DNA of 10,154 nucleotides from a bacterium (GTDB lineage: Bacteria; Patescibacteriota; Minisyncoccia; UBA9983): NCBI GenBank assembly GCA_023244795.1, contig JAHFLR010000020.1, positions 1-10,154 of the forward strand. The letters run 5' to 3'. The position numbers were made by a program, and so were the translations under genes. Of this stretch, positions 1 to 10,154 are shown piece by piece. Within the stretch, counting starts at the first letter, position 1; each line of letters begins with the position of its first letter. The notes beneath the pieces were generated by a model. It saw only the letters and a list, made by a program, of their open reading frames with translations. It was not told the origin of the DNA and made no database searches.

Positions 1-127
1 TCTTTCCGTAGATATAAGGGGAAACAAGATTAATAAGCTGATGCACCACCAAGAACAACATCATGTAAAAAACCACCTTTTTAAAGGGCTTCATCAGGTT
101 TAACAGCTTTTTGGTTAAATCTCTCAT
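1..127 (-). CDS. ABC transporter transmembrane/ATPase protein, N-terminus only (partial)
   Basis: Reading the minus strand from the ATG at 127 gives 42 codons that stay open to the window edge, so only the N-terminus is visible. It begins MRDLTKKLLNLMKPFKKVV, continues as a hydrophobic helix (FYMMLFLVVHQLINLVSPY) and ends YIYGK. A short cytoplasmic lead with a 'LMKPFKK'-like basic stretch, a first membrane helix and then 'SPYIYGK' is the usual opening of an ABC exporter transmembrane domain fused to its ATPase. The nucleotide-binding domain would lie outside the window, so the family call rests on the N-terminus alone. The ATG lies 11 bases after a perfect TATAAT box, which implies a leader of about five bases and no Shine-Dalgarno site. 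Substrate cannot be predicted. Other membrane proteins with a similar first helix are possible. Confidence 0.55.
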   Translation of the reverse strand, partial: MRDLTKKLLNLMKPFKKVVFYMMLFLVVHQLINLVSPYIYGK

Positions 128-138
128 AAACGCCTTTA

Positions 139-167
139 ATTATAGCACGTTGCGACGGACTTGACAA
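139..167 (-). promoter_or_regulatory. Promoter for the ABC transporter gene (TTGTCA-17-TGCTATAAT)
   Basis: On the minus strand, TTGTCA (167-162) is followed after 17 bases by a perfect TATAAT (144-139), preceded by TGC, an extended -10 signature. The expected transcript start is only about five bases before the ATG at 127. The -35 box overlaps the -35 of the divergent plus-strand promoter, so the two promoters probably cannot both be bound at once. Confidence 0.7.
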
Positions 168-190
168 ATGGCACCCGATGGGTGTATAAT
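161..190 (+). promoter_or_regulatory. Promoter for the zinc-ribbon gene (TTGACA-18-TATAAT)
   Basis: A consensus TTGACA (161-166) and a consensus TATAAT (185-190) are 18 bases apart. Transcription should start near 197, leaving a leader of about 107 bases before the ATG at 304. This is a near-perfect sigma70-type promoter and suggests strong expression of a very small protein. Confidence 0.75.
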
Positions 191-196
191 TGTATC

Positions 197-303
197 AATA
201 ATCGAGTTCGTCAAAATCGAGCGAGTCTATAAAATTAACTTTTTATAACGTAGCCATTTTGTATCGTAACGCGATAGGTCGCCAAAAAAATTAATAAAAC
301 AAA
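197..303 (+). promoter_or_regulatory. Long, possibly structured 5' leader of the zinc-ribbon gene
   Basis: About 107 bases separate the predicted transcript start from the ATG. They hold a repeated ATCGAG (201-206 and 216-221) and a hairpin at 262-276 (TATCG, five-base loop, CGATA). GCC (253-255) and GGT (277-279) could extend that stem across an internal bulge. The last 20 bases are A-rich with no Shine-Dalgarno sequence. The leader may control translation, but no known riboswitch class was recognised, and the structure is a hand-made pairing. Confidence 0.3.
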
Positions 304-510
304 ATGGCATACGATCAAAACAGAGGAGGCGGGTTTGCCCCAAGACAAATGTTTCAAGGAGATTGGAAGTGCTCTAAATGCGCCACGGATATAAAGGAAT
401 TACCTTTTAATCCAGACCCATCTAGATTAGACCAATTACTTTGCAGAGATTGTCACAAAGCAAATCGACCTGCTCGTCCATCCGGAGGTTTCCGAAGGGA
501 CTATAGGTAA
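304..510 (+). CDS. Small zinc-ribbon protein (CxxC-x20-CxxC)
   Basis: This 68-residue protein has two zinc knuckles, CSKC at residues 23-26 and CRDC at 47-50, which together should bind one zinc ion. The knuckles are framed by a Gly/Arg-rich N-terminus (RGGGFAPRQMF) and a basic Pro/Arg-rich tail ending GGFRRDYR. The layout fits the small CxxC-CxxC zinc-ribbon family often seen in Patescibacteria, whose function is unknown. The basic flanks suggest nucleic-acid or ribosome binding, which is an inference. The gene stands alone between a strong promoter and a strong terminator. The ATG has no Shine-Dalgarno site, only an A-rich stretch. There is no signal peptide, so it should be cytoplasmic. 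The reading is secure because of the motif and the clean transcription unit; the role is not known. Confidence 0.85.
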   Translation: MAYDQNRGGGFAPRQMFQGDWKCSKCATDIKELPFNPDPSRLDQLLCRDCHKANRPARPSGGFRRDYR

Positions 511-521
511 TTAACCTAAAC

Positions 522-560
522 AAAAACCCGCCCTGGATTTATTTACCAGGCGGGTTTTTT
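522..560. terminator. Bidirectional intrinsic terminator
   Basis: The arms ACCCGCCCTGG (526-536) and CCAGGCGGGT (546-555) pair around a nine-base AT-rich loop with one bulged C. The stem is flanked by AAAAA on the left and a run of T on the right. It can therefore end both the plus-strand zinc-ribbon transcript and the converging minus-strand transcript that ends with the protease gene. Confidence 0.88.
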
Positions 561-569
561 GTTTGGGTT

Positions 570-1622
570 TTAAGGGCACAATGCTTGAAGCATTTTTAAA
601 TCCTCCGCGCTCACCTGCATTTTTTGGCCCTCCTCCTTAGGATACATTATAGAGCTCGGGCTGGTGGCGTGCTCTAAACCAAGCGCGTGCCCTAGCTCAT
701 GAGCAATGGTGAGCACCAGGTCGTTTTTATCGTAATACTGGAAGATGTCTATTTTTTTCTGGTTGCCCTCGGATGTAAATAGGCCAGTTATAAATTCTTC
801 TCTTGATCCCTGAGTTTGATTATAATAACCCACGCTACTATTAACATTGGCCGCCAAACGATTATAAATTCCGGCCAGAGTGTTTAGCTGAGAGACCAAA
901 GCGTTAAAACTATCTTTGCTGATGTTTAAATCGTCGTACATTTGTTTGATTGCCTCTTGCTCGGGCTTTAATTGGTTAAGCATAGCGGTTAACACATCTT
1001 TTTGTTGGGAAAGTTTTTCGTACTCCGCTTGAGGAGCGCCGCCCTTACTGTTCCAAAAGGCTACATTTTTATTGTACTCGTCCATTTTTTGATTATAGGC
1101 GCTTAAAGAGAGCGCAAATGAGGCCTGCGCATCTTGATACTTTGCCAATCCGTCATTAAAGGAAGTATTGGCCGACTTTACACTGTCGGTTAATCTATTG
1201 TACTCCGATTTTACTGCCGCGAGCTTACCCTCCTCGGAGGTGATTCCGCCCAAGATACCCTTGAGACGGTCGGTATCGGATTGCCTTTGGTCAAAAACCA
1301 AATTGACTGGCACATTGCCGCTAACGGTAAGATCAAAAAGATTTTTGCCCGCCGCTTGCTCCCACATTTTTTCCGCCTGTTTTATGCTGGAAGAAAAATC
1401 CTCTCTGGAGATATTAAATCTTTTGTCTATGGCGCCTATAGATATTTGTAGCGGCTTGCCACAACCACTCGCGGTAGTAACGCCGCTAATTTTTTGCCTG
1501 ATTAAGTTTATCGTATCCAGATTAAAATTTAAATTTTTGTTTTTATAGATACTGGAGAAAACAAAAACCACTGCAAAAACTATTACAACTGTGAGCAGAA
1601 TTTTTATAAAATTTTTAAGCAT
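570..1622 (-). CDS. Membrane-anchored matrixin-type zinc metalloprotease with an internal coiled-coil insert
   Basis: This 350-residue protein opens with one membrane helix (residues about 5-24) and should be anchored with its bulk outside the membrane. The metzincin signature HELGHALGLEH is at 308-318 (zinc ligands H308, H312, H318; catalytic E309), followed by the Met-turn SSIMYP at 323-328. Both halves of the motif are intact. Residues 58-112 resemble the front half of a matrixin domain, with a segment like 'fSSSIKQAEKMWEQAAG'. Between that and the HExxH lie about 175 residues rich in Gln, Lys, Ser and Asn that look helical and coiled-coil. This is far longer than a normal matrixin, whose catalytic domain is about 160 residues. 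It is the last gene of the murL-murD run, nine bases after the oxidoreductase stop. The substrate is unknown; a role in envelope protein turnover or capture of external protein is an inference. Confidence 0.82.
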   Translation of the reverse strand: MLKNFIKILLTVVIVFAVVFVFSSIYKNKNLNFNLDTINLIRQKISGVTTASGCGKPLQISIGAIDKRFNISREDFSSSIKQAEKMWEQAAGKNLFDLTVSGNVPVNLVFDQRQSDTDRLKGILGGITSEEGKLAAVKSEYNRLTDSVKSANTSFNDGLAKYQDAQASFALSLSAYNQKMDEYNKNVAFWNSKGGAPQAEYEKLSQQKDVLTAMLNQLKPEQEAIKQMYDDLNISKDSFNALVSQLNTLAGIYNRLAANVNSSVGYYNQTQGSREEFITGLFTSEGNQKKIDIFQYYDKNDLVLTIAHELGHALGLEHATSPSSIMYPKEEGQKMQVSAEDLKMLQALCP

Positions 1623-1631
1623 TTTTATTGC

Positions 1632-2213
1632 TTATTTTAACCTGCGCCCCATTTGCTCCGCTTTTTTTAGCCAGCTCTCAATCTCCTTGGGTCCCCTAAA
1701 TTTTACCTTATCAAAATTGGTACAACAAACGGGGCCAACTCCGCAAAAACCCAAAACTCCCCCGCAAAGAGAAGATTTGCCCCCGTTACCATACATCAAC
1801 CAATTAAACCAAACCGGAGCATCCATGGTAACAAGTAGCCGAGCACTTTTATTTTTTAATAATTTTTCCGGGAACAGCTTGCTGGAAGCATATTTAAACC
1901 CAAAGCCCGGCAAGATGATTCTGTCGATAAAACCCTTAAAAAGGGCCGGTATATTTAGCCACCAGATTGGATAAACAAAAACTAAATGTTCCGCCCAAGT
2001 TATGGCCTCTTGAGCCATTTTTAAATCCGGCTCAAGCTCTTGGATCTCGTGGTAGCCTTTGTGTAAGATTGGGTCGAATTTAAGATCGTATAAATTTATT
2101 CTCTTAACTTCGGCGCCGGCCTCTTTTGCGCCTTTTTCGTATGCGCTAGCAATCGCCGTGCCCAGACTCTGATCATATGGATGAGCATTGATTATTAAAA
2201 TTTTCTTTGTCAT
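1632..2213 (-). CDS. Flavodoxin-fold NAD(P)H oxidoreductase (NQO1/KefF/MdaB-like)
   Basis: The 193-residue protein begins with a first beta strand and phosphate loop, KILIINAHPYDQSLGTAIA (residues 4-22), typical of flavodoxin_2 family quinone reductases that bind FMN or FAD. Residues 79-99 (FVYPIWWLNIPALFKGFIDRI) match the conserved 'P-W-W--P---K---DR' segment that lines the flavin and substrate site. The enzyme would move two electrons from NAD(P)H to a quinone or similar acceptor in the cytoplasm. Cysteines at 150, 157, 163 and 164 are numerous for the family and may relate to redox sensitivity. A TATAAT box sits six bases before the ATG in the 15-base gap after the phosphoesterase gene, so a leaderless secondary transcript is possible. 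The exact acceptor cannot be told from sequence. Confidence 0.85.
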   Translation of the reverse strand: MTKKILIINAHPYDQSLGTAIASAYEKGAKEAGAEVKRINLYDLKFDPILHKGYHEIQELEPDLKMAQEAITWAEHLVFVYPIWWLNIPALFKGFIDRIILPGFGFKYASSKLFPEKLLKNKSARLLVTMDAPVWFNWLMYGNGGKSSLCGGVLGFCGVGPVCCTNFDKVKFRGPKEIESWLKKAEQMGRRLK

Positions 2214-2219
2214 ATGTTT

Positions 2220-2225
2220 ATTATA
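2220..2225 (-). promoter_or_regulatory. Possible internal -10 box before the oxidoreductase gene
   Basis: A perfect TATAAT on the minus strand ends six bases before the ATG at 2213, which would place the transcript start on the ATG itself. No convincing -35 box is visible. This may be an internal promoter or a chance match in an AT-rich gap. Confidence 0.3.
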
Positions 2226-2228
2226 TCT

Positions 2229-3335
2229 CTACTTTAAGGTAACCGCCACAATCTCTGGAGTATTGCCCGTACGCATTGGTGGCCCCCAAGTACCAACGCC
2301 GTTGGAGGTATAGATATTGTAATCTCCGTCCGTACGCAAGCCATAATCGTAGCCGTCATATAAGATTTTAGTTATAAATCCAAAAGGAAAGATTTGCCCC
2401 GCGTGAGTATGGCCAGAGAGCTGCAAATTAACACCCAGCTCTTTGGCCTGCTTTATTATGCTTGGCATCGGCGAGTGGTAAAGCAATATCGTTGGCTTAC
2501 CGGCAACAAAATTATCCATAGAACTACTAACTTTTTTAAGGTCGCGAGCCTCGTTAAAGCTGCGGTCGTTCGGGTAACTGACACCAACAATCTGGAGGCC
2601 GTCTAAATCTACTGTCTTATCGTCTAATATTTTTATTTTTGTTTGCTTTAAAATATTAAAAGCTTTGTCTAGACCAAAATATGTTTCGTGATTGCCGGTT
2701 ATAAAATATACTCCGCGCGGCGCGTTGATATCGTTTATAACACTAGGCAAGCCCTCGGCTCCATCCATGCCGTCAAACAAGTCCCCGGTAATTACAACCA
2801 TCTCCGGATTAAGAGCGTTAACTTGATACACGATTTGCTTTAAAAAATCCTGACCGTGCACTGCTCCAATGTGCACATCGGAAAGTTGAACGATTGTTTT
2901 GCCCTGCCATACTTGGGGTAAATTTTTAATCGTTACATCTATTTTTTTAACCTGTGGGTGGAAGGCGTTCCACACTCCGTAAACAGAGTACAAGGCAGCT
3001 GCGGCAAACAAAATTATTGTGAGAGCTTTGTTGTTTATAAAAATAAGTCTTAAAAACCAAACGGCGGCGCAGGCCAAAAGCAGATTAACCAAAAGTCCCA
3101 GCCAAACAGCGGAAACTCGGTAGAGTGTTTTGGAAAAAATATTTTCTTGGAAGCGGACGAGCGCGGAGGCGACCACAAAGCTGGCAGTAAAAAGCAAGAT
3201 AACGATTACCAAGCCGTACCTTGCTGTTGGGTTAGTAATATTAAAAAACCTTATCAACGAATAACCGAGCAGTAGATGGGAGCCGAGCAATATAACAGCG
3301 GAAGAGATTAAAAAAAGAAGAACTTGCATGCCCAT
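2229..3335 (-). CDS. Membrane-anchored calcineurin-like metallophosphoesterase
   Basis: The protein has about four membrane helices in its first 125 residues and then a calcineurin-type phosphoesterase domain. All metal-site motifs are present in order: SDVH (152-155), GDLFDG (184-189), GNHE (214-217), YHSP (286-289) and GHTHAGQ (308-314). It should use two metal ions to cut phosphomonoesters or phosphodiesters, possibly in lipid or nucleotide substrates. The layout resembles the YkuE/YaeI-type membrane-linked enzymes, but substrate is not predictable. I chose the ATG at 3335, which gives 368 residues and starts just before the first helix. An ATG at 3422 would add 29 charged residues and overlap the murL-murD gene by 62 bases. 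Neither start has a clear Shine-Dalgarno site. The 25-base gap to murL-murD suggests one operon. Confidence 0.85.
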   Translation of the reverse strand: MGMQVLLFLISSAVILLGSHLLLGYSLIRFFNITNPTARYGLVIVILLFTASFVVASALVRFQENIFSKTLYRVSAVWLGLLVNLLLACAAVWFLRLIFINNKALTIILFAAAALYSVYGVWNAFHPQVKKIDVTIKNLPQVWQGKTIVQLSDVHIGAVHGQDFLKQIVYQVNALNPEMVVITGDLFDGMDGAEGLPSVINDINAPRGVYFITGNHETYFGLDKAFNILKQTKIKILDDKTVDLDGLQIVGVSYPNDRSFNEARDLKKVSSSMDNFVAGKPTILLYHSPMPSIIKQAKELGVNLQLSGHTHAGQIFPFGFITKILYDGYDYGLRTDGDYNIYTSNGVGTWGPPMRTGNTPEIVAVTLK

Positions 3336-3360
3336 TATAATAACATATTTACTTATAACT

Positions 3361-5871
3361 CTACCAATTTCTTCGAGACGATCTTTCTGCGAGGTGTTTA
3401 AACAAATCCCCCTTCTCCTCAAAATTTTTCCACAAACTATAGCTGGGTGAAGCCATAGAGAGAAGACAAATTTCTCCCTTCGGCGTATTTTTATAAGCGA
3501 ATCTGATGGCCTTATCCATACTGCTTGTCTCTAAAACATTAAAACCGCTCTGAGAGCTTAGTATCCTTTTGCCAGTATCGGGAAACAAAACAATGTTTTT
3601 TATTTTTCGTCGTCGGAGTTCTTTTTCTAGATTTGTAAAATCGTAACCCCTGTCCTCCCCGCCTAAAAATATCGTGCCTATTTGGGGCAGAGCCCGTATT
3701 GCCATTATTGTGGACTCCGGCGTGGTGGAAATAGCATCGTCGTAGAATATGACCCCATTAAACTCGCCCGCACGCTCCAGGCGATGAGGCAAAGGCTTAA
3801 ACATTTTTACTGCTCTCTTGACGATTTGAGTTGGGATTCTAAAAATTTTTGCCGTTGCTACAACGGCTTTTAGATTATCCTGGTTGTGCTTGCCCAGAAG
3901 TGATGTTTTATAGTCCTTTATTGGAACACTCCGAAAAGACAGCGCGGCCGCCGGCGACTCTTGGGCCCATTGTTTTAACTTTGGATTGTGACCATCATAT
4001 ATAAAGTAATCGCGACCAGACTGGAAACAAACGATGTTCCGTTTAGCCTTATAATAATTATCTACTCCATTATGATATGTCATGTGTTCTGGGAACAAGT
4101 TAAGAACCAGCGCGACATGTGGAGAATAACGCATATCGTCTAATTGGTAGCTAGAAAGTTCCGCAACAAAAATCTTTTGCTGATCAATAGACCGCAAAAG
4201 TTCGCCAAGCATGGGATTACCAATATTGCCGACGAGTTCCGCGGGTTTGCCGGCCTCTTTAAAAATGTGATATATCAACGAGGCGGTAGTGCTTTTGCCT
4301 TTGGTGCCTGTTACCCCGATGATTTTATTTTTTACCGAAGAAAAAAATATGTTGGTGGCCGTTGTATAAGGACGAGTAACCAGCGCCTTGGGTATGCCCG
4401 GAGTTTTTATTACAAGATCCCCGGTGCCTTGTTTCTTTAAATAATACTTACCGTCACTTTTATCGGCAATTATTATTTTAATTTTAGGATAAAACTTTTT
4501 AATGAACTTCTCTGTTGTCTTCCCTTCCTTGCCATAACCCAAGATAACAACGTTCTTAATACCAAAAAACTTAAAGCGATCCGGCAGGTTATCTGCAGAG
4601 CTGGTAAGAAAAACTTTTTTTATAGCATCTTCCGGTACGGTTGCCCTAGAAAGGAGCGCCGCCACAACGGCTGATTTTTTAAATTGACCGCTGGCCAAGG
4701 TAAAAGCCGCGCGCGACTCCTCAAAAGTACCCACGCATTCAAATGGTCTTATTTTGCCAAGCCCCAACACCTCCTCAAAAAGTGGTAGGAGTTTTTTATC
4801 TTCGTATAGATTGCTTTTAAAGATACCCAGTAACTCTTTTTTTGCTAAAAACGGAGAAAGCATGGTAAAAACAAAAACACATTTTGGGCATTCTCCACAC
4901 CAGAGTGAGCTTGGCTGTTTTTTGCTTACCGTAAAATTTTTATTACAGCTAGAAAAGTATGGAAAATATTTTTTATGTTTGGCAAACATCTCCGCAACCC
5001 TAATCTCAAAGAAAGGACGCAAAAGAGAAAAATAAATTACCCCGCCGCAAATATATTTTTTTGTATAACTTTGGAGCAACCCCTCAAACTCGGAAGACTT
5101 GCTCCACTGGTGATTTACTTCCTCTCCCATATAAACAACGTTGCCGAAGTTGCTGCTTTGCTCGTTTCCTACCACGATGTAAGAATAATTATATAAAATC
5201 GCGGCTAGCTCTCCAAGGAACGCCACGATAGCTGAAATGGGTATATGTCCGTTATATGAGCCCTCGTGTTTTTGAAAAATTTTTTCATCCAAAAAACGTT
5301 TTATAATAATCGAATCAACGCCCATCTGTTTTATAATCTTTCTTGAGATCTCCGATTGGCGTTGGGTCTCCACCAAAAAAGCGCTGTTTTTTATGCCATG
5401 TTCTTTTAGCAACTCGGCCACAACCACAGAATCTTTGCCGCCGCCGATTCCAACCAGTGCCTTGTCTGCTCTCTCCAAAAAACAAGCGGCTTGCTTTGCT
5501 TTTTTATTATGAGGAAACTTTACCAGGCCTCTCGGGTCTATATTGTTTTTATAAAAAAACTCCCCAAGACCCTTGGTGTATAAGGTCTCCCAAAACTGCG
5601 CCTGCTCTCGAGTTAGTAAATATTTTATTTTAATTTGAGACGGGCAATATAGTTTGTAGTAACTTATACCCAAAGCCATGTGCAAACTTTCTAAAATATT
5701 TTTTAAAGCTGGCTTAGAAGTTTTTGCGGGGATAGGCCTCGGCAAGATAATTGTCTCTTTAAAAACAAGCGCTGGTCTGTCTTTAAAACTCATCTTGTAA
5801 TTAAAGAATAGCTCCCTTTGGGATGGGCTTATTTTATAATAAGTAAACTCAAAACTTTGCGGCTTAATCAT
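3361..5871 (-). CDS. murL-murD: Fused MurL-MurD: UDP-MurNAc-L-Ala-L-Glu epimerase and UDP-MurNAc-L-Ala glutamate ligase
   Basis: This 836-residue protein joins two murein precursor enzymes. Residues 1 to about 430 look like MurL, which uses ATP to invert the terminal L-Glu of UDP-MurNAc-L-Ala-L-Glu. It has an ATP-pyrophosphatase-like loop GIGGGKDS (141-148), GNEQSSNFGN (235-244), EVNHQWSKS (251-259) and CGECPKC (325-331). Residues about 435-836 are a complete Mur ligase: GYGKEG near the start, the ATP loop GVTGTKGKST (519-528), ELSSYQLD (571-578), NLFPEHMTYH (591-600), HNQDN (662-666), LPHRLE (694-699), DDAISTTPEST (711-721) and the MurD-like ending SMASPSYSLWKNFEEKG. In Xanthomonas, MurD2 adds L-Glu and separate MurL epimerises it; here both would be on one chain. 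I chose the ATG at 5871 because the -10 box lies at 5882-5887, so the upstream ATGs at 5880 and 5931 cannot be on that transcript. Confidence 0.88.
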   Translation of the reverse strand: MIKPQSFEFTYYKISPSQRELFFNYKMSFKDRPALVFKETIILPRPIPAKTSKPALKNILESLHMALGISYYKLYCPSQIKIKYLLTREQAQFWETLYTKGLGEFFYKNNIDPRGLVKFPHNKKAKQAACFLERADKALVGIGGGKDSVVVAELLKEHGIKNSAFLVETQRQSEISRKIIKQMGVDSIIIKRFLDEKIFQKHEGSYNGHIPISAIVAFLGELAAILYNYSYIVVGNEQSSNFGNVVYMGEEVNHQWSKSSEFEGLLQSYTKKYICGGVIYFSLLRPFFEIRVAEMFAKHKKYFPYFSSCNKNFTVSKKQPSSLWCGECPKCVFVFTMLSPFLAKKELLGIFKSNLYEDKKLLPLFEEVLGLGKIRPFECVGTFEESRAAFTLASGQFKKSAVVAALLSRATVPEDAIKKVFLTSSADNLPDRFKFFGIKNVVILGYGKEGKTTEKFIKKFYPKIKIIIADKSDGKYYLKKQGTGDLVIKTPGIPKALVTRPYTTATNIFFSSVKNKIIGVTGTKGKSTTASLIYHIFKEAGKPAELVGNIGNPMLGELLRSIDQQKIFVAELSSYQLDDMRYSPHVALVLNLFPEHMTYHNGVDNYYKAKRNIVCFQSGRDYFIYDGHNPKLKQWAQESPAAALSFRSVPIKDYKTSLLGKHNQDNLKAVVATAKIFRIPTQIVKRAVKMFKPLPHRLERAGEFNGVIFYDDAISTTPESTIMAIRALPQIGTIFLGGEDRGYDFTNLEKELRRRKIKNIVLFPDTGKRILSSQSGFNVLETSSMDKAIRFAYKNTPKGEICLLSMASPSYSLWKNFEEKGDLFKHLAERSSRRNW

Positions 5872-5881
5872 AACAAACATT

Positions 5882-5910
5882 ATTATAGCAAAAGAAAGAG
5901 GGCGACCGAA
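5882..5910 (-). promoter_or_regulatory. Extended -10 promoter for murL-murD
   Basis: On the minus strand, TGC precedes a perfect TATAAT (5887-5882), ten bases before the ATG at 5871. The predicted leader is about four bases with no ribosome-binding site. The -35 position (5910-5905, TTCGGT) is a poor match and lies in the loop side of the preceding terminator, so recognition probably depends on the extended -10. Confidence 0.65.
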
Positions 5911-5917
5911 GTCGCCC
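5890..5917 (-). terminator. Intrinsic terminator with UUCG tetraloop
   Basis: On the minus strand GGGCGAC and GTCGCCC form a seven-pair stem (5900-5906 with 5911-5917) closed by TTCG, followed by TCTTTCTTTT. It ends the transcript of the two small genes at 5970-6418 and sits directly in front of the murL-murD promoter. Confidence 0.85.
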
Positions 5918-5969
5918 CCACAATACAACATTGAGGAATTTGCTCGATTGAGCAGAAGAGCGCAGCGCC

Positions 5970-6173
5970 CTAGGCCTTGGGTTCCGGGCTCATGAGGCTA
6001 AAGCCCTCGGCCGCAGCTTGCAAGCGCACCTTCTCGGCGCCCTCGGTATCGCCACGCTGCAGGCACCCAGTGTACCGGATCAAAAACTCGATGTCTTTGT
6101 TCATCCTTTCTCCTCCTTCTTTTGCCGGTTGGCATTTGCACGGGTTACAAGGCTCTTTACATCCGCATTCCAT
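5970..6173 (-). CDS. Small cysteine-cluster protein of unknown function, with a possible second start
   Basis: The 67-residue product starts with a dense cysteine cluster (C3, C5, C9, C12, C14, pattern CxCx3CxxCxC) reminiscent of a metallothionein or a metal-binding knuckle. A helical acidic/basic part follows (about residues 26-55) with a single Cys at 37. The ATG at 6173 has GGAGG six bases upstream. An in-frame ATG at 6104 (residue 24) is preceded by an even better AAGGAGG seven bases upstream, which would yield a 44-residue form lacking the cluster. It lies 14 bases after the 76-residue gene, and a UUCG terminator follows, so the two form a small operon. No family was recognised. The coding call rests on the ribosome-binding sites, spacing and terminator. 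Confidence 0.65.
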   Translation of the reverse strand: MECGCKEPCNPCKCQPAKEGGERMNKDIEFLIRYTGCLQRGDTEGAEKVRLQAAAEGFSLMSPEPKA

Positions 6174-6187
6174 TTCCGCCCTCCTCT

Positions 6188-6418
6188 CTACTCGACGCGA
6201 GTAATTTTAAGACCGCGGAAGATTGTGCCGTTTCTGGTCAATAAAATCGCCTCTTTCAACATCTCTACATCAATCGGTATTTCTTGGTACCCCCTCATCG
6301 CGACGATAGGACAAGGAAAAAAATGATGGGTAGGTGTACAAAGGTCCTTGCACTCTTCAAAGTCGTCGCAATCAAGTTTCCTTTCTGCCCTTTCCAGTTC
6401 GACAATAAACTTCGGCAT
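6188..6418 (-). CDS. Small Cys/His-containing protein of unknown function
   Basis: This 76-residue protein has a Cys/His-rich centre (C17, C23, C27, H31, H32, C36) that could bind a metal ion. After it come a short strand-like region (YQEIPIDVEMLKEAI) and the ending RGLKITRVE. There is no signal peptide or membrane segment. A Shine-Dalgarno sequence AGGAAGGAG lies seven bases before the ATG, in an A-rich leader. It is the first gene of a two-gene operon with the cysteine-cluster protein. The pair lies downstream of the ubiquitin-like operon on the same strand, but two terminators separate them, so co-transcription is unlikely. No family was recognised, and membership of the conjugation system is not established. 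Confidence 0.65.
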   Translation of the reverse strand: MPKFIVELERAERKLDCDDFEECKDLCTPTHHFFPCPIVAMRGYQEIPIDVEMLKEAILLTRNGTIFRGLKITRVE

Positions 6419-6478
6419 TTTCGTTCTCCTTCCTCTGTTGTTGTTTTTTCGAATATTGGATTGTTAAAGAACTAAACT

Positions 6479-6512
6479 AAAACTGGTCTCTGTTGCCAGA
6501 GACCAGTTTTTT
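6479..6512. terminator. Perfect 14-pair hairpin terminator
   Basis: AAAACTGGTCTCTG (6479-6492) and CAGAGACCAGTTTT (6497-6510) pair without mismatch around TTGC. On the minus strand the stem's own T-run is followed by AGTTTAG, so it could stop the short transcript that starts near 6626. It could also work as an attenuator in a longer leader of the gene at 6418. On the plus strand T bases follow the stem too. Confidence 0.75.
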
Positions 6513-6532
6513 ATTTTGATATTGTGGATTCT

Positions 6533-6619
6533 TTACCTCTTATCAACGCAAAAAACTAAGCTCTGGCGCAGGCCCATAAAATAAAACCAGAAATTAAATT
6601 TTTGCATTAAACTCTTCAT
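6533..6619 (-). CDS. Candidate 28-residue hydrophobic microprotein
   Basis: From the ATG at 6619 a 28-codon frame reads MKSLMQKFNFWFYFMGLRQS and then LVFCVDKR before TAA. The middle is strikingly aromatic (FNFWFYFMGL), framed by basic residues at both ends, as in a small membrane peptide or leader peptide. The ATG lies 13 bases after a TATAAA box, close to the near-leaderless spacing of other genes in this window. A perfect terminator follows 20 bases after the stop. There is no Shine-Dalgarno site. The transcript could equally be a non-coding RNA. A longer in-frame reading from 6730 is unlikely because it would cross the promoter and the terminator of the neighbouring operon. Confidence 0.35.
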   Translation of the reverse strand: MKSLMQKFNFWFYFMGLRQSLVFCVDKR

Positions 6620-6632
6620 AAATCTTTGTATT

Positions 6633-6663
6633 TTTATATTAGCAAAACATTGGCGGCTGTCAA
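6633..6663 (-). promoter_or_regulatory. Promoter for the short unit at 6479-6626
   Basis: A consensus TTGACA (6663-6658) is followed on the minus strand by TATAAA (6638-6633) at 19 bases, or by AATATA (6640-6635) at 17 bases. Transcription should begin near 6626 and run into the perfect hairpin at 6479-6512, giving an RNA of about 150 bases. Confidence 0.55.
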
Positions 6664-6667
6664 CCTC

Positions 6668-6708
6668 ATTAAAAAGAAAATGGGGAGGAGCTTCGCAGCC
6701 CCTCCCCA
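6668..6708 (-). terminator. Terminator of the ubiquitin-like operon
   Basis: On the minus strand TGGGGAGG and GCT pair with AGC and CCTCCCCA (6681-6708, one A-C mismatch) around a four-base loop. The hairpin is followed by ATTTTCTTTTTAATG. It lies about 45 bases after the ubiquitin-like gene's stop and marks the operon end. Confidence 0.8.
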
Positions 6709-6751: not shown

Positions 6752-6964
6752 CTACCCGTTCTCGTCGTCCTCGGTCACGAAGACGACGTCTCCGTCGTTG
6801 ATCTTCGTGTCGAGATCGATGACCTCGCCCTCGCGTTCGAGGACCTCGCCCTTGCGCAGGCGGATGCCGGCGCCGCTGACGAGATCCTGCGCGGAAGCAT
6901 CGCTCTTGAGGCCAACCTCCGTGGACTTCTCCCCTGTGCGGGCAATCGTTGCCAACATGCTCAT
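6752..6964 (-). CDS. Ubiquitin-like beta-grasp modifier protein ending in glycine
   Basis: The 70-residue product reads like a ThiS/MoaD/ubiquitin-type beta-grasp fold. Two opening strands come first (residues 3-9 and 15-20), then a helix with the pattern SAQDLVSGAGI (24-34), and then strands through KGEVLEREGEVIDLDTKI. The hallmark INDGDVVFV (55-63) precedes a short acidic tail, TEDDENG. The chain ends on Gly70, so the C-terminal carboxylate needed for adenylation would already be exposed without proteolytic trimming. It has one terminal Gly, not the usual GlyGly. Its role would be to be activated by the E1 encoded just upstream and passed to the E2-like protein. AAAGGAGGT, eight bases before the ATG, is the strongest ribosome-binding site in the window, fitting a modifier needed in excess over its enzymes. 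The fold is inferred from pattern, not from a search. Confidence 0.75.
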   Translation of the reverse strand: MSMLATIARTGEKSTEVGLKSDASAQDLVSGAGIRLRKGEVLEREGEVIDLDTKINDGDVVFVTEDDENG

Positions 6965-7016
6965 GTGTGAGTACCTCCTTTCCCCAGGATTTTTGTTTCT
7001 CTAATCCAAGAGTATC

Positions 7017-7673
7017 CTACCTAAACACCGTCCGAACGTCAAGGTCTTGCCCAGCTACCTGGAAGGGCACCTTGCCGCCAACGATGTGGGCACTAATGCT
7101 TACCCAGATGTAGTAATCCAGCGCCATCCCCGCCTGTGGCGCAAATCGCGCGGTGCAGGGCGCCTCCATCGGAGGCTTGCTGAGATCCAACTGGGTTTCG
7201 TAAACCTCGATGTGTTGCGGATTACAGGGATTGACGGCGAAGAGTTTGAACCTCTTACCGCCAACCCTGCCGTCCAAATACAAAGGGATACCGGGGTTGA
7301 ACTTGATGGACTCCCAGATCTTGGCGCGCGTCTCTTTGGAATCGACGCCACAAACCACGATACCGGAGAGTTCCTCCTGCCCATCGAACTTTTCCTGATG
7401 CGCAGAAACCGAAACCTGGCACCCCGCCTCTAAGCGACTCTTGAGCGCGAGAACCTTCGGAGAATCAACTTCTCCAAAACCGAAACGTTGAGAGCCGACG
7501 TTTTCGTTTCCGACAACGTCGTCATCCCAAAGAGAGAGATTAAAGCCAATCTCGGCCAGCGTTTGCGCAACGCGACTGCCGATACCCCCGCAACCGATGA
7601 TGGTAACGGGAGAGTTGGCTTTTACCTGCTCTTGCTTAAAAAAATCGGAAAATCTGGAACGCGGTACTCCCAT
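7017..7673 (-). CDS. ThiF-family E1-like activating enzyme for the ubiquitin-like protein
   Basis: The 218-residue protein has the E1/ThiF/MoeB adenylation core. It shows the nucleotide loop GCGGIGS (27-33), the acidic WDDDVV (49-54) that binds the ATP ribose, the hallmark NENVGSQRFG (56-65, equivalent to the usual N-x-x-RQ segment), a K at 73 and the GVDS-ETR region (109-116). Cys173 in EAPCTARFAPQAG is the best candidate for the catalytic cysteine that would form a thioester with the modifier. It is shorter than most MoeB/ThiF proteins (about 250 residues) and has no fused E2 or rhodanese domain. No CxxC zinc pairs are visible, which differs from MoeB. A GGGGGGAG ribosome-binding site precedes the ATG, 22 bases after the JAB gene. 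The ubiquitin-like gene follows after a 52-base gap. Confidence 0.87.
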   Translation of the reverse strand: MGVPRSRFSDFFKQEQVKANSPVTIIGCGGIGSRVAQTLAEIGFNLSLWDDDVVGNENVGSQRFGFGEVDSPKVLALKSRLEAGCQVSVSAHQEKFDGQEELSGIVVCGVDSKETRAKIWESIKFNPGIPLYLDGRVGGKRFKLFAVNPCNPQHIEVYETQLDLSKPPMEAPCTARFAPQAGMALDYYIWVSISAHIVGGKVPFQVAGQDLDVRTVFR

Positions 7674-7695
7674 TTGTTTGCTCCCCCCTTGGTTG

Positions 7696-8748
7696 CTAGT
7701 GATTGAGAGGAGGAGCGCCCCTGCGGGCTATCCTCCTGCTCGACCTGCTCGAGTAAGCAACCGGAGTGTATCTTGTTACCATGGGTAGCACGATGACCGT
7801 CAGCTTTTTTGCAATCTGCTCTGCGGCCTCGGCTCGCACGTCGGGCAGTTGCGGCAAATCAACATTCACCGCTACCGGGTCTGTCTTCATTGACCACGGC
7901 CCGACATTAAAACGAAGTTGAGAGAAAAAGACACCGTGATGTTGCCCCACCGATACGAAGATCTTGTGGCGCACGCGTTCGGATGTCTTTACCCAAGAGG
8001 AGGCCTGGAGCGCGGTTACAAGTTTCTTGCGCTCTTGCTTCTTGCTTCCTCTGGGATAGTAACAAATGCCTCTGGTAGTGACGGTGGGGATAATCCATGC
8101 TTCCTCTCTGACAATTACTTTTACATCTCCGGAGTAAGCGCTCTCGCCCTCTTTCAGCGAGAGAAGAGCGGAGGTGTCTTTGATTTGCACCTCAAGCTCT
8201 TCGATACGTGGCTCTTGCCCTGGTTCGGAAACCTGGAACAGCGCGCCGCGGTACTCAACAAAAACAGGGAGATGGCTTATGTTTACCCTAAAAGGCGCAA
8301 ACACTTCCAGGTCAATCTGGAATTTGCCGGAACTGACGCCCCTGCCAACCATCATCCACTCCACATCTTTGAGGCCAAACTTGGCGGTATTGTTTTCGTC
8401 TATCACGGATTCGCCAAGGGAGAAATAGCTAATGCCCGGATGTTTGTGCATGTGCAGTTTGTACCTACACTCGCCTTGCGAGTTCTCATAGGCTCTCCTA
8501 CGTATGCAATCCGAGAGCCATTTGCCAAAGTCTCCGCCTTCCTTAGCGGTGGGAACATGCACCTCGGCCACGCCGGCCTTTTGGATGGGGAGGAAAACCT
8601 CTTTTACGAGGAAATCCTTCTCGTTCCAATCGGCCAAACCGCGCCAAGAAACCTCTTCCTCTGTCGCGTTCATCCACCCCACGCATCTCTCAAAGATTTC
8701 GTGGGGCAGAATGATTCTGGGTGCTCCCCTTACGACCATTTCGGCCAT
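7696..8748 (-). CDS. JAB/MPN-domain protein, putative isopeptidase of the ubiquitin-like system
   Basis: In this 350-residue protein the first 165 residues look like a JAB/MPN metalloprotease. A strand with the candidate catalytic glutamate reads EEVSWRG (31-37), followed by VKEVFLPIQ (48-56) and the metal motif region HMHKHPGISYFSLGE with SVID after it (99-117). Such enzymes use zinc to cut a modifier from its targets or trim its precursor. The motif is off register: the canonical pattern is HxH, seven residues, SxxD. Here HKH is followed by six residues and SLGE, so the metal-binding Asp is replaced by Glu113 or supplied by Asp117. Residues 165-350 are unrecognised, with a long strand-rich part and a basic tail (SSRSSRRIARRG). 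The start codon overlaps the E2 stop as TGATG, and GAGGAG lies nine bases upstream, so the two are translationally coupled. Confidence 0.75.
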   Translation of the reverse strand: MAEMVVRGAPRIILPHEIFERCVGWMNATEEEVSWRGLADWNEKDFLVKEVFLPIQKAGVAEVHVPTAKEGGDFGKWLSDCIRRRAYENSQGECRYKLHMHKHPGISYFSLGESVIDENNTAKFGLKDVEWMMVGRGVSSGKFQIDLEVFAPFRVNISHLPVFVEYRGALFQVSEPGQEPRIEELEVQIKDTSALLSLKEGESAYSGDVKVIVREEAWIIPTVTTRGICYYPRGSKKQERKKLVTALQASSWVKTSERVRHKIFVSVGQHHGVFFSQLRFNVGPWSMKTDPVAVNVDLPQLPDVRAEAAEQIAKKLTVIVLPMVTRYTPVAYSSRSSRRIARRGAPPLNH

Positions 8749-10154
8749 CAGGAAGCTCTCCTCAACTTATCCTTTTTTTTGGCCAAGGAAGCTTTTGTTG
8801 CCTTGGGCCAATGATCTACGGGCACAAAAGGCTCGCCGTAGCTATTGAGACGACTCCAGATTCTGCAAATCGCCATAAAATATTGGTAATTGCTAATCAT
8901 CTTGTCTATCTCGTCTCCCGCGGAGCCGAAACAAACGTCATCCGAATTGTTAACGTGGGGGTGATGATGACCCTCAACCGTTCCGTCCAAATTAACGCAC
9001 GCGAAAATCTTGCGGTTGAGATTGAGAACGATACGGAATCTTCCGATTCTTCGATCTTTCAAAATTACTTCCGTGGTCTCAACCCACACACTCTCGTCGC
9101 TAACCCCAACCTTGGTTACGAAGGCCTGCTCCTTGAGCATTTTAAACTCTCTCTCGGCCGAGGCCGCAATGCTGGCCGCATCGTCAAGTCGCTTCGCTTT
9201 GAGTGAGGCGATAAGACGATAAAGGCCGGTAATAGTTTGAGAGAGAGTTTGAACATCGTTCTCCTTCCGAGAGATTTCTTCTTCTCTCTCGTCGGATTCT
9301 TCCCGCAACCTTTCGGTGCAGAGTTTAATATATTTGCCCTTTGATTCGGCGGCAATCTTTGTTTCTCTGGCTCTGCTGGCCGCGACAATCTCCTTAACCT
9401 TTTTGGTGTCGGAAAGAAACGCGGCGTAGTGGTCAAGGATCTTGGAAAGTATGCTCTTGTCCTCGCTTGTATATTCGTAAAAGAGATTGCAGTGGATAAA
9501 GAGGTTGTTAAGCCCCCCCGCGCCACAGGCCTCTCCGTACAGCTCTCCGTGATTGTCTTTGAGGGGCACGCCACCAGCCTTAAGGATCTCTTCTTCCTTT
9601 ACTAATATCGCACTTCGGCGACGTCCCCCAACACCAAACAAGTCTGCTCTACCATAATCTGTTTCCGCGTCAACGACAATCGTCGAGTACGGAAAAATGT
9701 GTATAGCGTTGCCATCAGCCGGAGCGTGACAGCTCCCATGGCCGGAATGCAAAACGACTCGTTTGCCAATTTTCTTGGCAAAAGCCTCCAGGAGAGGCCG
9801 GGCCCATTTGTTATCTTGGTCTTGGTGGAGCTCTATGCTCACTACTGCCATCTCGCTCTCCTCCTCTTTCTTGCGGCGAGCCGTAACCCACCGCTTTATC
9901 ATCTGATACACCATTGCGTACTTCTGTTCTCCGATGAGTTGCGCAAGCCCGGCCTTAGCCGCGCCAGAACAAATCTCATGGAATGGAATCTCTTCTCCTG
10001 AAATGACGAGTTTGTAGAGACCAGTTTTGGTATCGATAGTAAGTATGTCACCACCCTCCAAAGAAATCTCGAGGATGTAGCCCAGAAATACGGAGATCGG
10101 CGCATCGCGCAAGATCTTCTCAAAATCCGCGCCGAATTGCTCGGCTTGGAGGAG
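8748..10154 (-). CDS. E2-like ubiquitin-conjugating protein with a large unknown N-terminal region (partial)
   Basis: The frame is open to the window edge, so the true start lies beyond 10154. A TTG at 10112 could start translation but is not needed. Counted from that TTG, residues about 335-435 look like an E2 fold. Strands such as GRFRIVLNLNRKIFACVNLDG (357-377) precede HPHV (384-387) and C394 in DDVCFG. HPH-x7-C has exactly the spacing of HPN-x7-C around the catalytic cysteine of eukaryotic E2s. A helical tail and a basic end (KKKDKLRR) follow. Residues about 237-330 are charged and probably coiled-coil. Residues 1-235 were not recognised; they include HSGHGSCH (122-129) and ACGAGG with C208, possible metal sites. 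It would accept the modifier from the E1 and pass it to targets. It overlaps the JAB gene by one base. Confidence 0.75.
   Translation of the reverse strand, partial: LLQAEQFGADFEKILRDAPISVFLGYILEISLEGGDILTIDTKTGLYKLVISGEEIPFHEICSGAAKAGLAQLIGEQKYAMVYQMIKRWVTARRKKEEESEMAVVSIELHQDQDNKWARPLLEAFAKKIGKRVVLHSGHGSCHAPADGNAIHIFPYSTIVVDAETDYGRADLFGVGGRRRSAILVKEEEILKAGGVPLKDNHGELYGEACGAGGLNNLFIHCNLFYEYTSEDKSILSKILDHYAAFLSDTKKVKEIVAASRARETKIAAESKGKYIKLCTERLREESDEREEEISRKENDVQTLSQTITGLYRLIASLKAKRLDDAASIAASAEREFKMLKEQAFVTKVGVSDESVWVETTEVILKDRRIGRFRIVLNLNRKIFACVNLDGTVEGHHHPHVNNSDDVCFGSAGDEIDKMISNYQYFMAICRIWSRLNSYGEPFVPVDHWPKATKASLAKKKDKLRRAS

What the first reader, a model, noticed from the sequence alone, without database searches (positions are those of the whole stretch)
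6752..10154. Compact bacterial ubiquitin-like conjugation operon: E2, JAB, E1, modifier
Four same-strand genes encode every enzymatic step of a ubiquitin cycle: a glycine-ending beta-grasp protein, a ThiF-type E1, an E2-like protein with HPH-x7-C, and a JAB/MPN protein. The genes are tightly spaced, with a TGATG overlap and a terminator after the modifier. Related sets are known as the antiphage Bil and Bub operons and in CBASS (Cap2/Cap3). Here the order, the unfused short E1 and the large E2 extension do not match a layout I can place with certainty. In a probable Patescibacterium the role could be defence or a housekeeping modification system.
Basis: partly seen in the sequence, partly recalled or inferred. 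Interest (0 to 1): 0.88.

Follow-up and report, generated by a model that had tools for sequence, protein, structure and literature searches.

The report
Minimal bacterial ubiquitin-like tagging operon
A tiny-genome bacterium carries four adjacent genes that look like a stripped-down version of our own ubiquitin protein-tagging system, and the same gene set turns up in distant cousins, sometimes next to protein-shredding machines, and on viral DNA, so it offers a new place to study how such tagging works outside eukaryotes.

Summary
In detail: on the minus strand, E2-like (8748-10154, cut by the contig end), JAB (7696-8748), E1 (7017-7673) and a 70-aa ubiquitin-like protein (6752-6964) lie head to tail. 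Profiles made with relatives identify them: Ubl to SAMP2 (2e-9), E1 to ThiF and UBA5 (Cys173 on a UBA5 cysteine), JAB to Rpn11 (3e-5), E2 core to UBE2L3 (0.0026, HPH-x7-C over HPN-x7-C). All four genes in the order E2-JAB-E1-Ubl occur in 22 of 29 E1-bearing loci; 15 of 17 named loci bear Patescibacterial names. Plasmid PRTRC shares E2-JAB-E1 order and E1/JAB kinship, but this is a separate lineage, and not Bil or CBASS. A sublineage (6 loci) has a Cdc48-type AAA before E2, with ClpP (3) or a Lon domain (1) before that. Related cassettes lie on viral contigs; E1 plus JAB also in Flavobacterium and crAss-like phages. Likeliest: reversible Ubl conjugation, perhaps feeding proteolysis. The window's JAB is the one of 24 without canonical JAMM spacing. 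No structure could be predicted.

The parts
8748..10154 (-). E2-like gene (5' end cut by the contig end): N-terminal domain of unknown fold, long coiled-coil-like stretch, C-terminal E2/UBC-like core
   Evidence: Open frame 468 aa; full-length profile hits coiled-coil proteins; E2 core profile of 27 rows has UBE2L3 as best PDB hit, E 0.0026; C408 and G410 in at least 90% of 16 rows
8931..8933 (-). codon of E2 Cys408, the predicted thioester cysteine (HPH-x7-C)
   Evidence: P[HN]-x7-C in 7 of 27 E2 proteins, C-x-G in 26 of 27; aligned with the HPN-x7-C segment of UBE2L3
7696..8748 (-). JAB/MPN-type metalloprotease gene, with a long C-terminal part
   Evidence: Profile of 15 rows hits Rpn11-type proteins, best E 2.7e-5; only copy found in the own genome
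8398..8454 (-). JAB active-site segment HMHKHPGISYFSLGESVID; non-canonical JAMM spacing
   Evidence: 23 of 24 JABs have HxHx7SxxD; the window is the only exception; E32, H99, H101, S114 and D117 are invariant columns, but the register inside the motif is uncertain
7017..7673 (-). E1-like (ThiF-fold) activating enzyme, 218 aa
   Evidence: PF00899 1.1e-12; PDB profile hits ThiF 6.4e-17 and UBA5 3e-16 over positions 15-196
7155..7157 (-). codon of E1 Cys173, the predicted catalytic cysteine
   Evidence: Invariant in 15 of 15 E1s; aligned with the cysteine of UBA5 REGVC-AASLPTT
6752..6964 (-). ubiquitin-like beta-grasp modifier, 70 aa, C-terminal Asn-Gly
   Evidence: Profile of 21 rows hits PF1061 1.2e-9 and SAMP2 2.1e-9; [NG]-G at or within 3 residues of the end in 21 of 26 Ubls
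6974..6981 (-). Shine-Dalgarno-like AAAGGAGG before the Ubl
   Evidence: sequence printed
7681..7688 (-). purine-rich GGGGGGAG before the E1 gene
   Evidence: sequence printed
8746..8750 (-). TGATG stop/start overlap of E2 and JAB
6681..6708 (-). candidate intrinsic terminator after the Ubl
   Evidence: 12-bp stem, 4-nt loop, then TTTTCTTTTT; site counts in the region do not exceed shuffles

Best explanation
This is a self-contained, reversible ubiquitin-like protein-conjugation cassette of a family found mainly in Patescibacteria, probably acquired horizontally. Proposed cycle: the 70-aa Ubl already ends in -Asn-Gly and needs no trimming; the small E1 (as in UBA5, with the catalytic cysteine inside the adenylation domain) adenylates that glycine and carries it as a thioester on Cys173; it passes to Cys408 of the E2, whose N-terminal part and coiled coil choose or hold targets; the E2 puts it on target amines; the JAB protein removes it (and trims the longer Ubl precursors of relatives). 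Shown: the four genes, kinship by sequence profile (E2 modestly), conserved cysteines, order and co-occurrence. Inferred: every reaction step. What the tag does is not shown; the best hint is a sublineage with a Cdc48-type AAA and ClpP or a Lon domain in the same gene row, which points to tag-directed unfolding or degradation, there at least.
For: Profiles tie each product to a conjugation component. All four genes in one order in 22 of 29 E1-bearing loci, mostly overlapping or within some tens of bases (starts are mechanical, so overlaps can be overstated, as in L074; L021 has 423 nt before its Ubl). In 379 genomes of the phylum the E2 profile hits 6, the same 6 with an E1 match at E <= 3.6e-18. 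Ubl C-terminal [NG]G in 21 of 26; C-x-G in 26 of 27 E2s; JAMM in 23 of 24 JABs. Some Ubls have residues after the glycine (NGQI, GGPNIVLS, GGR), as a precursor for a JAB would. AAA before E2 in 6 of 6 loci of the sublineage, ClpP in 3, Lon_C in 1; the sixth locus was found with an E2 profile alone. The AAA is nearest to VCP-like ATPase, p97 and Cdc48 in the PDB.
Against: No structure could be predicted. The E2 match to UBE2L3 is modest (0.0026 with 27 rows, 0.36 with 9 rows), and only 7 of 27 E2s have P[HN]-x7-C; L073 lacks the C-x-G motif. All six genomes hit had contributed a row to that profile, so only the lack of hits in the other 373 is informative. No JAB was found in L022, L023, L079, L081, L085; no Ubl in L022, L066, L081; L081 has a lone E1. 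The window's own JAB breaks the JAMM spacing and could be weak or dead. Five of 26 Ubls (L020, L021, L023, L024, L065) do not end at or within three residues of [NG]G. The window shows no protease or AAA gene (its 5' side is cut off), and none was seen among the frames beside L020, L021 and L024.
Confidence: 0.75

Rival explanations
1. Anti-phage defence system that works like Bil or type II CBASS: on infection the Ubl is attached to phage or host proteins and blocks phage assembly or primes an effector.
For: Patchy distribution (none of the 10 same-family genomes listed; E 2.8e-26 or better in 11 of 383 genomes of the class, own included), different GC, partial hits to PADLOC E1-E2 models (best 2.5e-12 over residues 19-85). 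Four of the eight PADLOC families seen once each among neighbours (MzaA, mad3, AbiO, Nhi) are named for defence systems.
Against: No PADLOC family recurs among 82 neighbours, and the 25 of 97 Pfam families listed are mostly housekeeping. No CBASS gene is among the PADLOC hits. Relatives of the gene set are carried on viral contigs and in phages.
Confidence: 0.25
2. Phage-derived or phage-serving cassette: phages use it to tag host proteins (takeover or counter-defence), and Patescibacteria hold copies taken from phages or other mobile elements.
For: Five of six viral-contig loci carry Ubl, E2, JAB and E1 by profile; 77 of 50,697 phage records match one of these E1s, and in a Flavobacterium and a crAss-like phage a JAMM protein directly precedes it; window E1 hits phrog_15670 at 3.8e-14.
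Against: The window's other genes are chromosomal in kind as far as named; the Patescibacterial loci lie among genes whose listed families are mostly housekeeping. E2 and Ubl of the two named phages were not found by profile. That the IMG/VR contigs are viral was taken from the collection and hardly tested.
Confidence: 0.2
3. Sulfur-carrier pathway like ThiS/ThiF or MoaD/MoeB: the Ubl carries sulfur as a thiocarboxylate and is not conjugated.
For: ThiS and ThiF are the nearest Pfam names; the E1 profile's best PDB hit is ThiF.
Against: E2-like protein with conserved cysteine, and a JAMM-type protein, which thiamine and molybdopterin operons lack according to PMC1779556 section 16.
Confidence: 0.06
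4. A decaying copy: cassette acquired by the organism and now losing function, JAB first.
For: The JAB is the only one of 24 without HxHx7SxxD; no JAB was found in 5 of 29 loci, against 2 without E2 and 3 without Ubl.
Against: Four long open frames, close spacing, strong Shine-Dalgarno-like site before the Ubl, conserved E1 and E2 cysteines; a second E2-type gene exists in the genome.
Confidence: 0.12

Closest known systems
PRTRC plasmid system (recalled as operon type 6d of Iyer, Burroughs and Aravind 2006, whose description it fits)
   Same: Core order E2 (protein B), JAB (protein A), stand-alone E1 (ThiF) in 4 of 6 plasmid regions fetched, the other 2 lacking A or B annotation; small Ubl (protein C); E1 profile match 99.6% and JAB 93.4% (52% with another JAB alignment); C-x-G at the E2 cysteine
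   Different: Ubl lies after E1, not before; no ParB, E or F seen; no JAB-N domain recognised; E2 carries a coiled coil; E2 and Ubl profiles do not match; E1 far below the TIGR03736 cut-off (47.5 of 144.75 bits); the 29 E1s and 6 PRTRC E1s lie on opposite sides of a branch with SH-aLRT 100 (quick tree)
Bil (BilABCD)
   Same: Four genes: Ubl, E2, JAB, E1
   Different: BilA has two Ubl domains, BilD is a pseudodimer with an 80-aa cysteine domain, BilB has CEHH (PMC11354881 passages); here one Ubl, a 218-aa E1 and no CEHH
Type II CBASS (Cap2/Cap3)
   Same: E1, E2 and JAB activities (recalled)
   Different: E1 and E2 are separate proteins here; no CD-NTase seen; Cap2 matches the E1 only locally
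Archaeal and eukaryotic systems: SAMP2 with JAMM1, Rpn11, UBA5-UFM1, UBE2L3
   Same: Best or near-best PDB kin of Ubl (SAMP2), JAB (Rpn11), E1 cysteine position (UBA5) and E2 (UBE2L3)
   Different: Bacterial operon; HPH in place of HPN; Asn-Gly instead of Gly-Gly tail; an E3 or RING protein was not searched for

Membership tests
PRTRC system | E1 reaches the curated cut-off of TIGR03736 PRTRC_ThiF | tested here: not met
   47.5 bits against 144.75
PRTRC system | Order E2, JAB, E1 in one operon | tested here: met
   window; plasmids L068, L070, L071, L072
PRTRC system | Ubl (protein C), ParB, E and F upstream | tested here: inconclusive
   Upstream of the window's E2 is off the contig; in the 26 loci with a Ubl it follows E1
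PRTRC system | E2 and Ubl homologous to proteins B and C | tested here: inconclusive
   hhalign 3.4% and 0.2%; small profiles
Bil | Two-domain Ubl, pseudodimeric E1 with cysteine domain, E2 CEHH motif | tested here: not met
   Ubl 70 aa, E1 218 aa; no Glu at +6 and no His at +8 and +13 after Cys408 (sequence); feature list from passages of PMC11354881
Type II CBASS | Fused E1-E2 (Cap2) | tested here: not met
   E1 and E2 are separate genes
Type II CBASS | CD-NTase in the operon | tested here: inconclusive
   none seen, but the upstream side of the window is cut; no CBASS family among PADLOC hits of 82 neighbours of relatives
Bub | Bub operon architecture | not tested
   defining papers not held; only passages of PMC13373217 that name it
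JAMM/MPN+ deubiquitinase | Glu plus HxHx7SxxD | tested here: not met
   window alone of 24 lacks the spacing; Glu32 and two His present
E1-like (ThiF fold) activating enzymes | PF00899 over cut-off, GxGxxGS, DxD, conserved Cys | tested here: met
   48 bits against 28.1; invariant columns
E2/UBC superfamily | UBC fold with catalytic Cys | tested here: inconclusive
   profile hit to UBE2L3 0.0026; fold prediction not obtained
Ubiquitin-like beta-grasp modifiers | beta-grasp domain with C-terminal Gly | tested here: met
   by profile only: SAMP2 2.1e-9; ends in Gly70

The most novel reading that the evidence does not exclude
The window operon is the minimal form of a bacterial ubiquitin-unfoldase-protease system: a family with an Asn-Gly or Gly-Gly Ubl, a UBA5-like E1, a UBC-like E2 and a JAMM protein, whose full form adds a Cdc48-type AAA and an interchangeable ClpP or Lon chamber in one operon, and whose cassettes are shared with phages, including crAss-like phages in which the E1 is listed as a thiamine gene.
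Probability: 0.35. Interest if true: 0.93.

Novelty: new variant of a known kind. Interest (0 to 1): 0.78.

Why it matters
The bacterial sets of this kind that I know of (the 2006 operon types, CBASS, Bil, Bub) were tied mainly to mobile elements or phage defence. This one is a stand-alone family in minimal-genome Patescibacteria with small, separate enzymes and an E2 active-site motif in the eukaryotic register, convenient for reconstitution. If the sublineage with Cdc48-type AAA and ClpP or Lon works as its gene order suggests, bacteria have a second route, besides Pup and the proteasome, from a covalent protein tag to proteolysis, which bears on how ubiquitin came to be joined to Cdc48 and the proteasome. 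The copies in cultured phages make a role in infection directly testable.

Tried and rejected
Structure prediction of E2 (A13, 18 tries) and JAB (A14, one try); machine busy each time, so no fold search was run. Single-protein scan of viral contigs with the window E1: 3 pattern hits, none confirmed; alignment A8 then found 6. A 15-row E1 alignment had no searchable stretch. The full-length E2 profile gave mainly coiled-coil proteins in the PDB; the core alone was then used. Window E2 against plasmids: no match. E2 and Ubl profiles did not find E2 or Ubl in Fpv1 and PhiCrAssBcn22: only E1 and JAB are shown there; neighbouring ORFs with C-I-G-S or C-T-G are a guess from position. Rejected: Bil, CBASS, PRTRC membership (features not met), thiamine or molybdopterin function.

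Rows dropped before counts: of 19 genomes hit (own included), 13 weaker ones (E 1.5e-6 or worse) were not examined as operons, though stretches of four of them were fetched; of 57, besides the own genome and G256 only nine (E 2.8e-26 or better) were followed, 46 not. Three of the nine (L058, L059, L062) are the same loci as L086, L084, L077 and were counted once. L102 (low-complexity frame) was set aside. Neighbour scan: 82 proteins of a list of 150 frames were given to PADLOC and Pfam; neighbours in the sublineage with AAA were left out and ten proteins from there scanned apart.

Literature: (all 10 searches, held library only; one search was swamped by unrelated words). Among the rows listed, often a part (15 of 58, 15 of 48, 12 of 41, 25 of 1,691), I saw no paper on such an operon in Patescibacteria or on Ubl conjugation with Cdc48 and ClpP. 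The crAss-like phage paper PMC7886860 has no hit for ubiquitin, ThiF, JAB or thiamine in its main text. Sections 14 and 16 of PMC1779556 were read; passages only of PMC11354881, PMC13373217, PMC12687455, PMC6744442 (the last two in reference lists); other papers as search listings.


Full report
What is there. The window is one whole contig (C17) of a 573,329-base genome in 83 contigs, 84.66% complete. On the minus strand lie E2-like (8748-10154, running off the contig), JAB (7696-8748), E1 (7017-7673) and Ubl (6752-6964). E2 and JAB share TGATG; the other gaps are 22 and 52 nt; the Ubl has AAAGGAGG before its ATG. A hairpin with a T run follows at 6708-6681; sites of that kind are no more frequent in the region than in its shuffles. 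GC of E2, JAB, E1 and Ubl is 0.50, 0.53, 0.55 and 0.63 against 0.415 for bases 1-6680, third-position GC 0.56-0.86 against 0.42-0.46 in four other genes.

What the proteins are. Alone, only the E1 is over a Pfam cut-off (ThiF 1.1e-12). With relatives: Ubl profile (21 rows) to PF1061 1.2e-9 and SAMP2 2.1e-9; E1 (15 rows) to ThiF 6.4e-17 and UBA5 3e-16, with the invariant cysteine (window Cys173) on the cysteine of UBA5's REGVC-AAS (that this is UBA5's catalytic cysteine is recalled); JAB (15 rows) to an Rpn11-like protein and Rpn11 2.7e-5 and to JAMM1 0.0018, and one relative's JAB, L059, passes Prok-JAB (25.4 against 25 bits), four others scanned come below it and three give no hit at E 0.001 or better or only a weak one; E2 core (27 rows) to UBE2L3 0.0026, with 9 rows 0.36. 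In the alignment the conserved P-H-x7-C lies on HPN-x7-C. The weakest identification is E2; no fold could be predicted.

Relatives. E1 searches in samples of the phylum (379 genomes) and class (383) gave 19 and 57 genomes at E <= 0.001, own included; I followed 5 and 9 strong ones. A scan of genome contigs gave 17 named loci: Saccharibacteria, Ryanbacteria, Sungbacteria, Vogelbacteria, other Parcubacteria or Patescibacteria, and two called only 'bacterium'. Without duplicates and with the window this makes 29 loci: E2 in 27, JAB in 24, Ubl in 26, all four in 22, there in the order E2-JAB-E1-Ubl without exception. L080's locus begins inside the operon, so its E2 is not in it; L081 has the E1 alone. 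In the phylum sample the E2 profile hits exactly the six genomes with strong E1 hits; all six had a row in the profile, so the weight is in the 373 without. None of the 10 same-family genomes listed has the E1. The own genome has one JAB, one E1 and a second, different E2-type gene at the very end of contig C40, cut off inside the E2 core.

Conserved signatures. Ubl tails end in Asn-Gly in 11 of 26, in Gly-Gly (not counting Asn-Gly-Gly) in 3, and [NG]G lies at or within three residues of the end in 21. Ends such as NGQI, NGC, GGR and GGPNIVLS suggest trimming. E2s have C-[aliphatic or aromatic]-G in 26 of 27, P[HN]-x7-C-x-G in 7 (window, L020, L021, L023, L024, L074, L075). JAMM HxHx7SxxD is in 23 of 24 JABs; the exception is the window, where HMHKHPGISYFSLGESVID allows no register with that spacing. 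In 13 of 25 E2s long enough to score, but not in the window's visible part (1.35), the highest 19-residue hydropathy exceeds 2, which could be a membrane anchor (in L060 it lies in the E2 core).

Sublineage with unfoldase and protease. In L060, L061, L064, L065 and L066 an AAA protein of 620-666 aa lies directly before E2 (PF00004, 2.3e-25 to 7.5e-30). Its profile is nearest in the PDB to a VCP-like ATPase, p97 and Cdc48, with PAN at 4.5e-38 (two-domain chains score twice). Before it lies ClpP in L060 and L061 (3.1e-27, 8.1e-29) and a Lon_C domain at a contig start in L064/L096 (1.4e-8). ClpB-type AAA genes adjoin in L060 and, divergently, L092 (the longer stretch of L065); there are sub-cut-off AAA_2 matches in L064 and L065 and none in L066. 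An E2 profile of these five then found a sixth genome, G694, whose contig reads LON_substr_bdg, ClpP, AAA, then E2 and JAB, end. So AAA is in 6 of 6, ClpP in 3 of 6, Lon_C in 1 of 6. The E1s of the five form one side of a branch (SH-aLRT 96, quick tree), in which the place of the window's E1 is not resolved. This is the best clue to what the tag may do.

Viruses. A scan of viral contigs gave 6 loci; L098, L099, L100, L101 and L103 carry Ubl, E2, JAB and E1 by profile, with E2-JAB-E1 in that order and Ubl before or after; L101 has two Ubls in tandem with KGGG and KGGR ends. L098 has a neighbour with weak matches to helicase families; otherwise I took the contigs' viral nature from the collection. 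The window E1 matches phrog_15670 (3.8e-14), as do three viral E1s. The L101 E1 matches 77 of 50,697 phage records, 29 of Flavobacterium and 29 of Bacteroides phages by name; in many of the rows shown it is listed as a thiamine biosynthesis protein. In Fpv1 and the Crassvirales phage PhiCrAssBcn22 a JAMM protein (1.7e-10, 1.4e-12) directly precedes the E1 (1.5e-42, 4.8e-40); E2 and Ubl are not found by profile, only ORFs in the expected places.

Known systems. Four of six PRTRC-bearing plasmid regions fetched show B-A-ThiF, that is E2-JAB-E1, in that order. Profile comparison: E1 99.6%, JAB 93.4% (52.3% with another alignment), E2 3.4%, Ubl 0.2%. The window E1 is far below the PRTRC_ThiF cut-off, and the 29 E1s stand apart from 6 PRTRC ones with SH-aLRT 100. 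So it works like a PRTRC-type system in its core, but I do not file it as a member. Iyer and others predicted from such operons a conjugation and removal cycle (PMC1779556 sections 14 and 16). Bil features and the CBASS fusion are not met; Bub could not be tested.

Function. Defence is not favoured by the neighbours but not excluded. I take reversible conjugation as most likely (0.75), a link to proteolysis with a phage-shared family as the bolder reading (0.35 for the novel case), and phage-host conflict as a real alternative given the viral copies.

Noticed in passing
G000 contig C40, L090:8921-10033 (+): A second, different E2-type gene in the same genome, cut off by the contig end inside the E2 core; no second E1 or JAB was found.
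   Followed up: partly
window 3361-5931 (-): MurL-MurD fusion: MurL-like part (2.2e-103, below that model's cut-off) joined to MurD (4.3e-71).
   Followed up: no
L104 (Flavobacterium phage Fpv1) 2183-4475: The JAB-like gene before the E1 seems to lie in two pieces around an annotated endonuclease gene on the other strand.
   Followed up: no
L105 (Bacteroides phage PhiCrAssBcn22) 2801-5148: A gene listed as thiamine biosynthesis protein in a crAss-like phage is an E1-type protein directly after a JAMM protein.
   Followed up: partly
L097:5585-6280 (-): Stand-alone Lon substrate-binding domain before ClpP, AAA, E2 and JAB.
   Followed up: partly
L023:6445-8691 (+): E2-E1-Ubl without JAB between genes that look like rpsB-tsf and the glyceraldehyde-3-phosphate dehydrogenase gene (read from the translations).
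   Followed up: no
window 570-1622 (-): Metzincin-like protein (HELGHALGLEH) with a coiled-coil-like stretch in front (sub-cut-off hits).
   Followed up: no
window 304-510 (+): Small CxxC-x17-CxxC zinc-ribbon-like protein (below the family cut-off).
   Followed up: no
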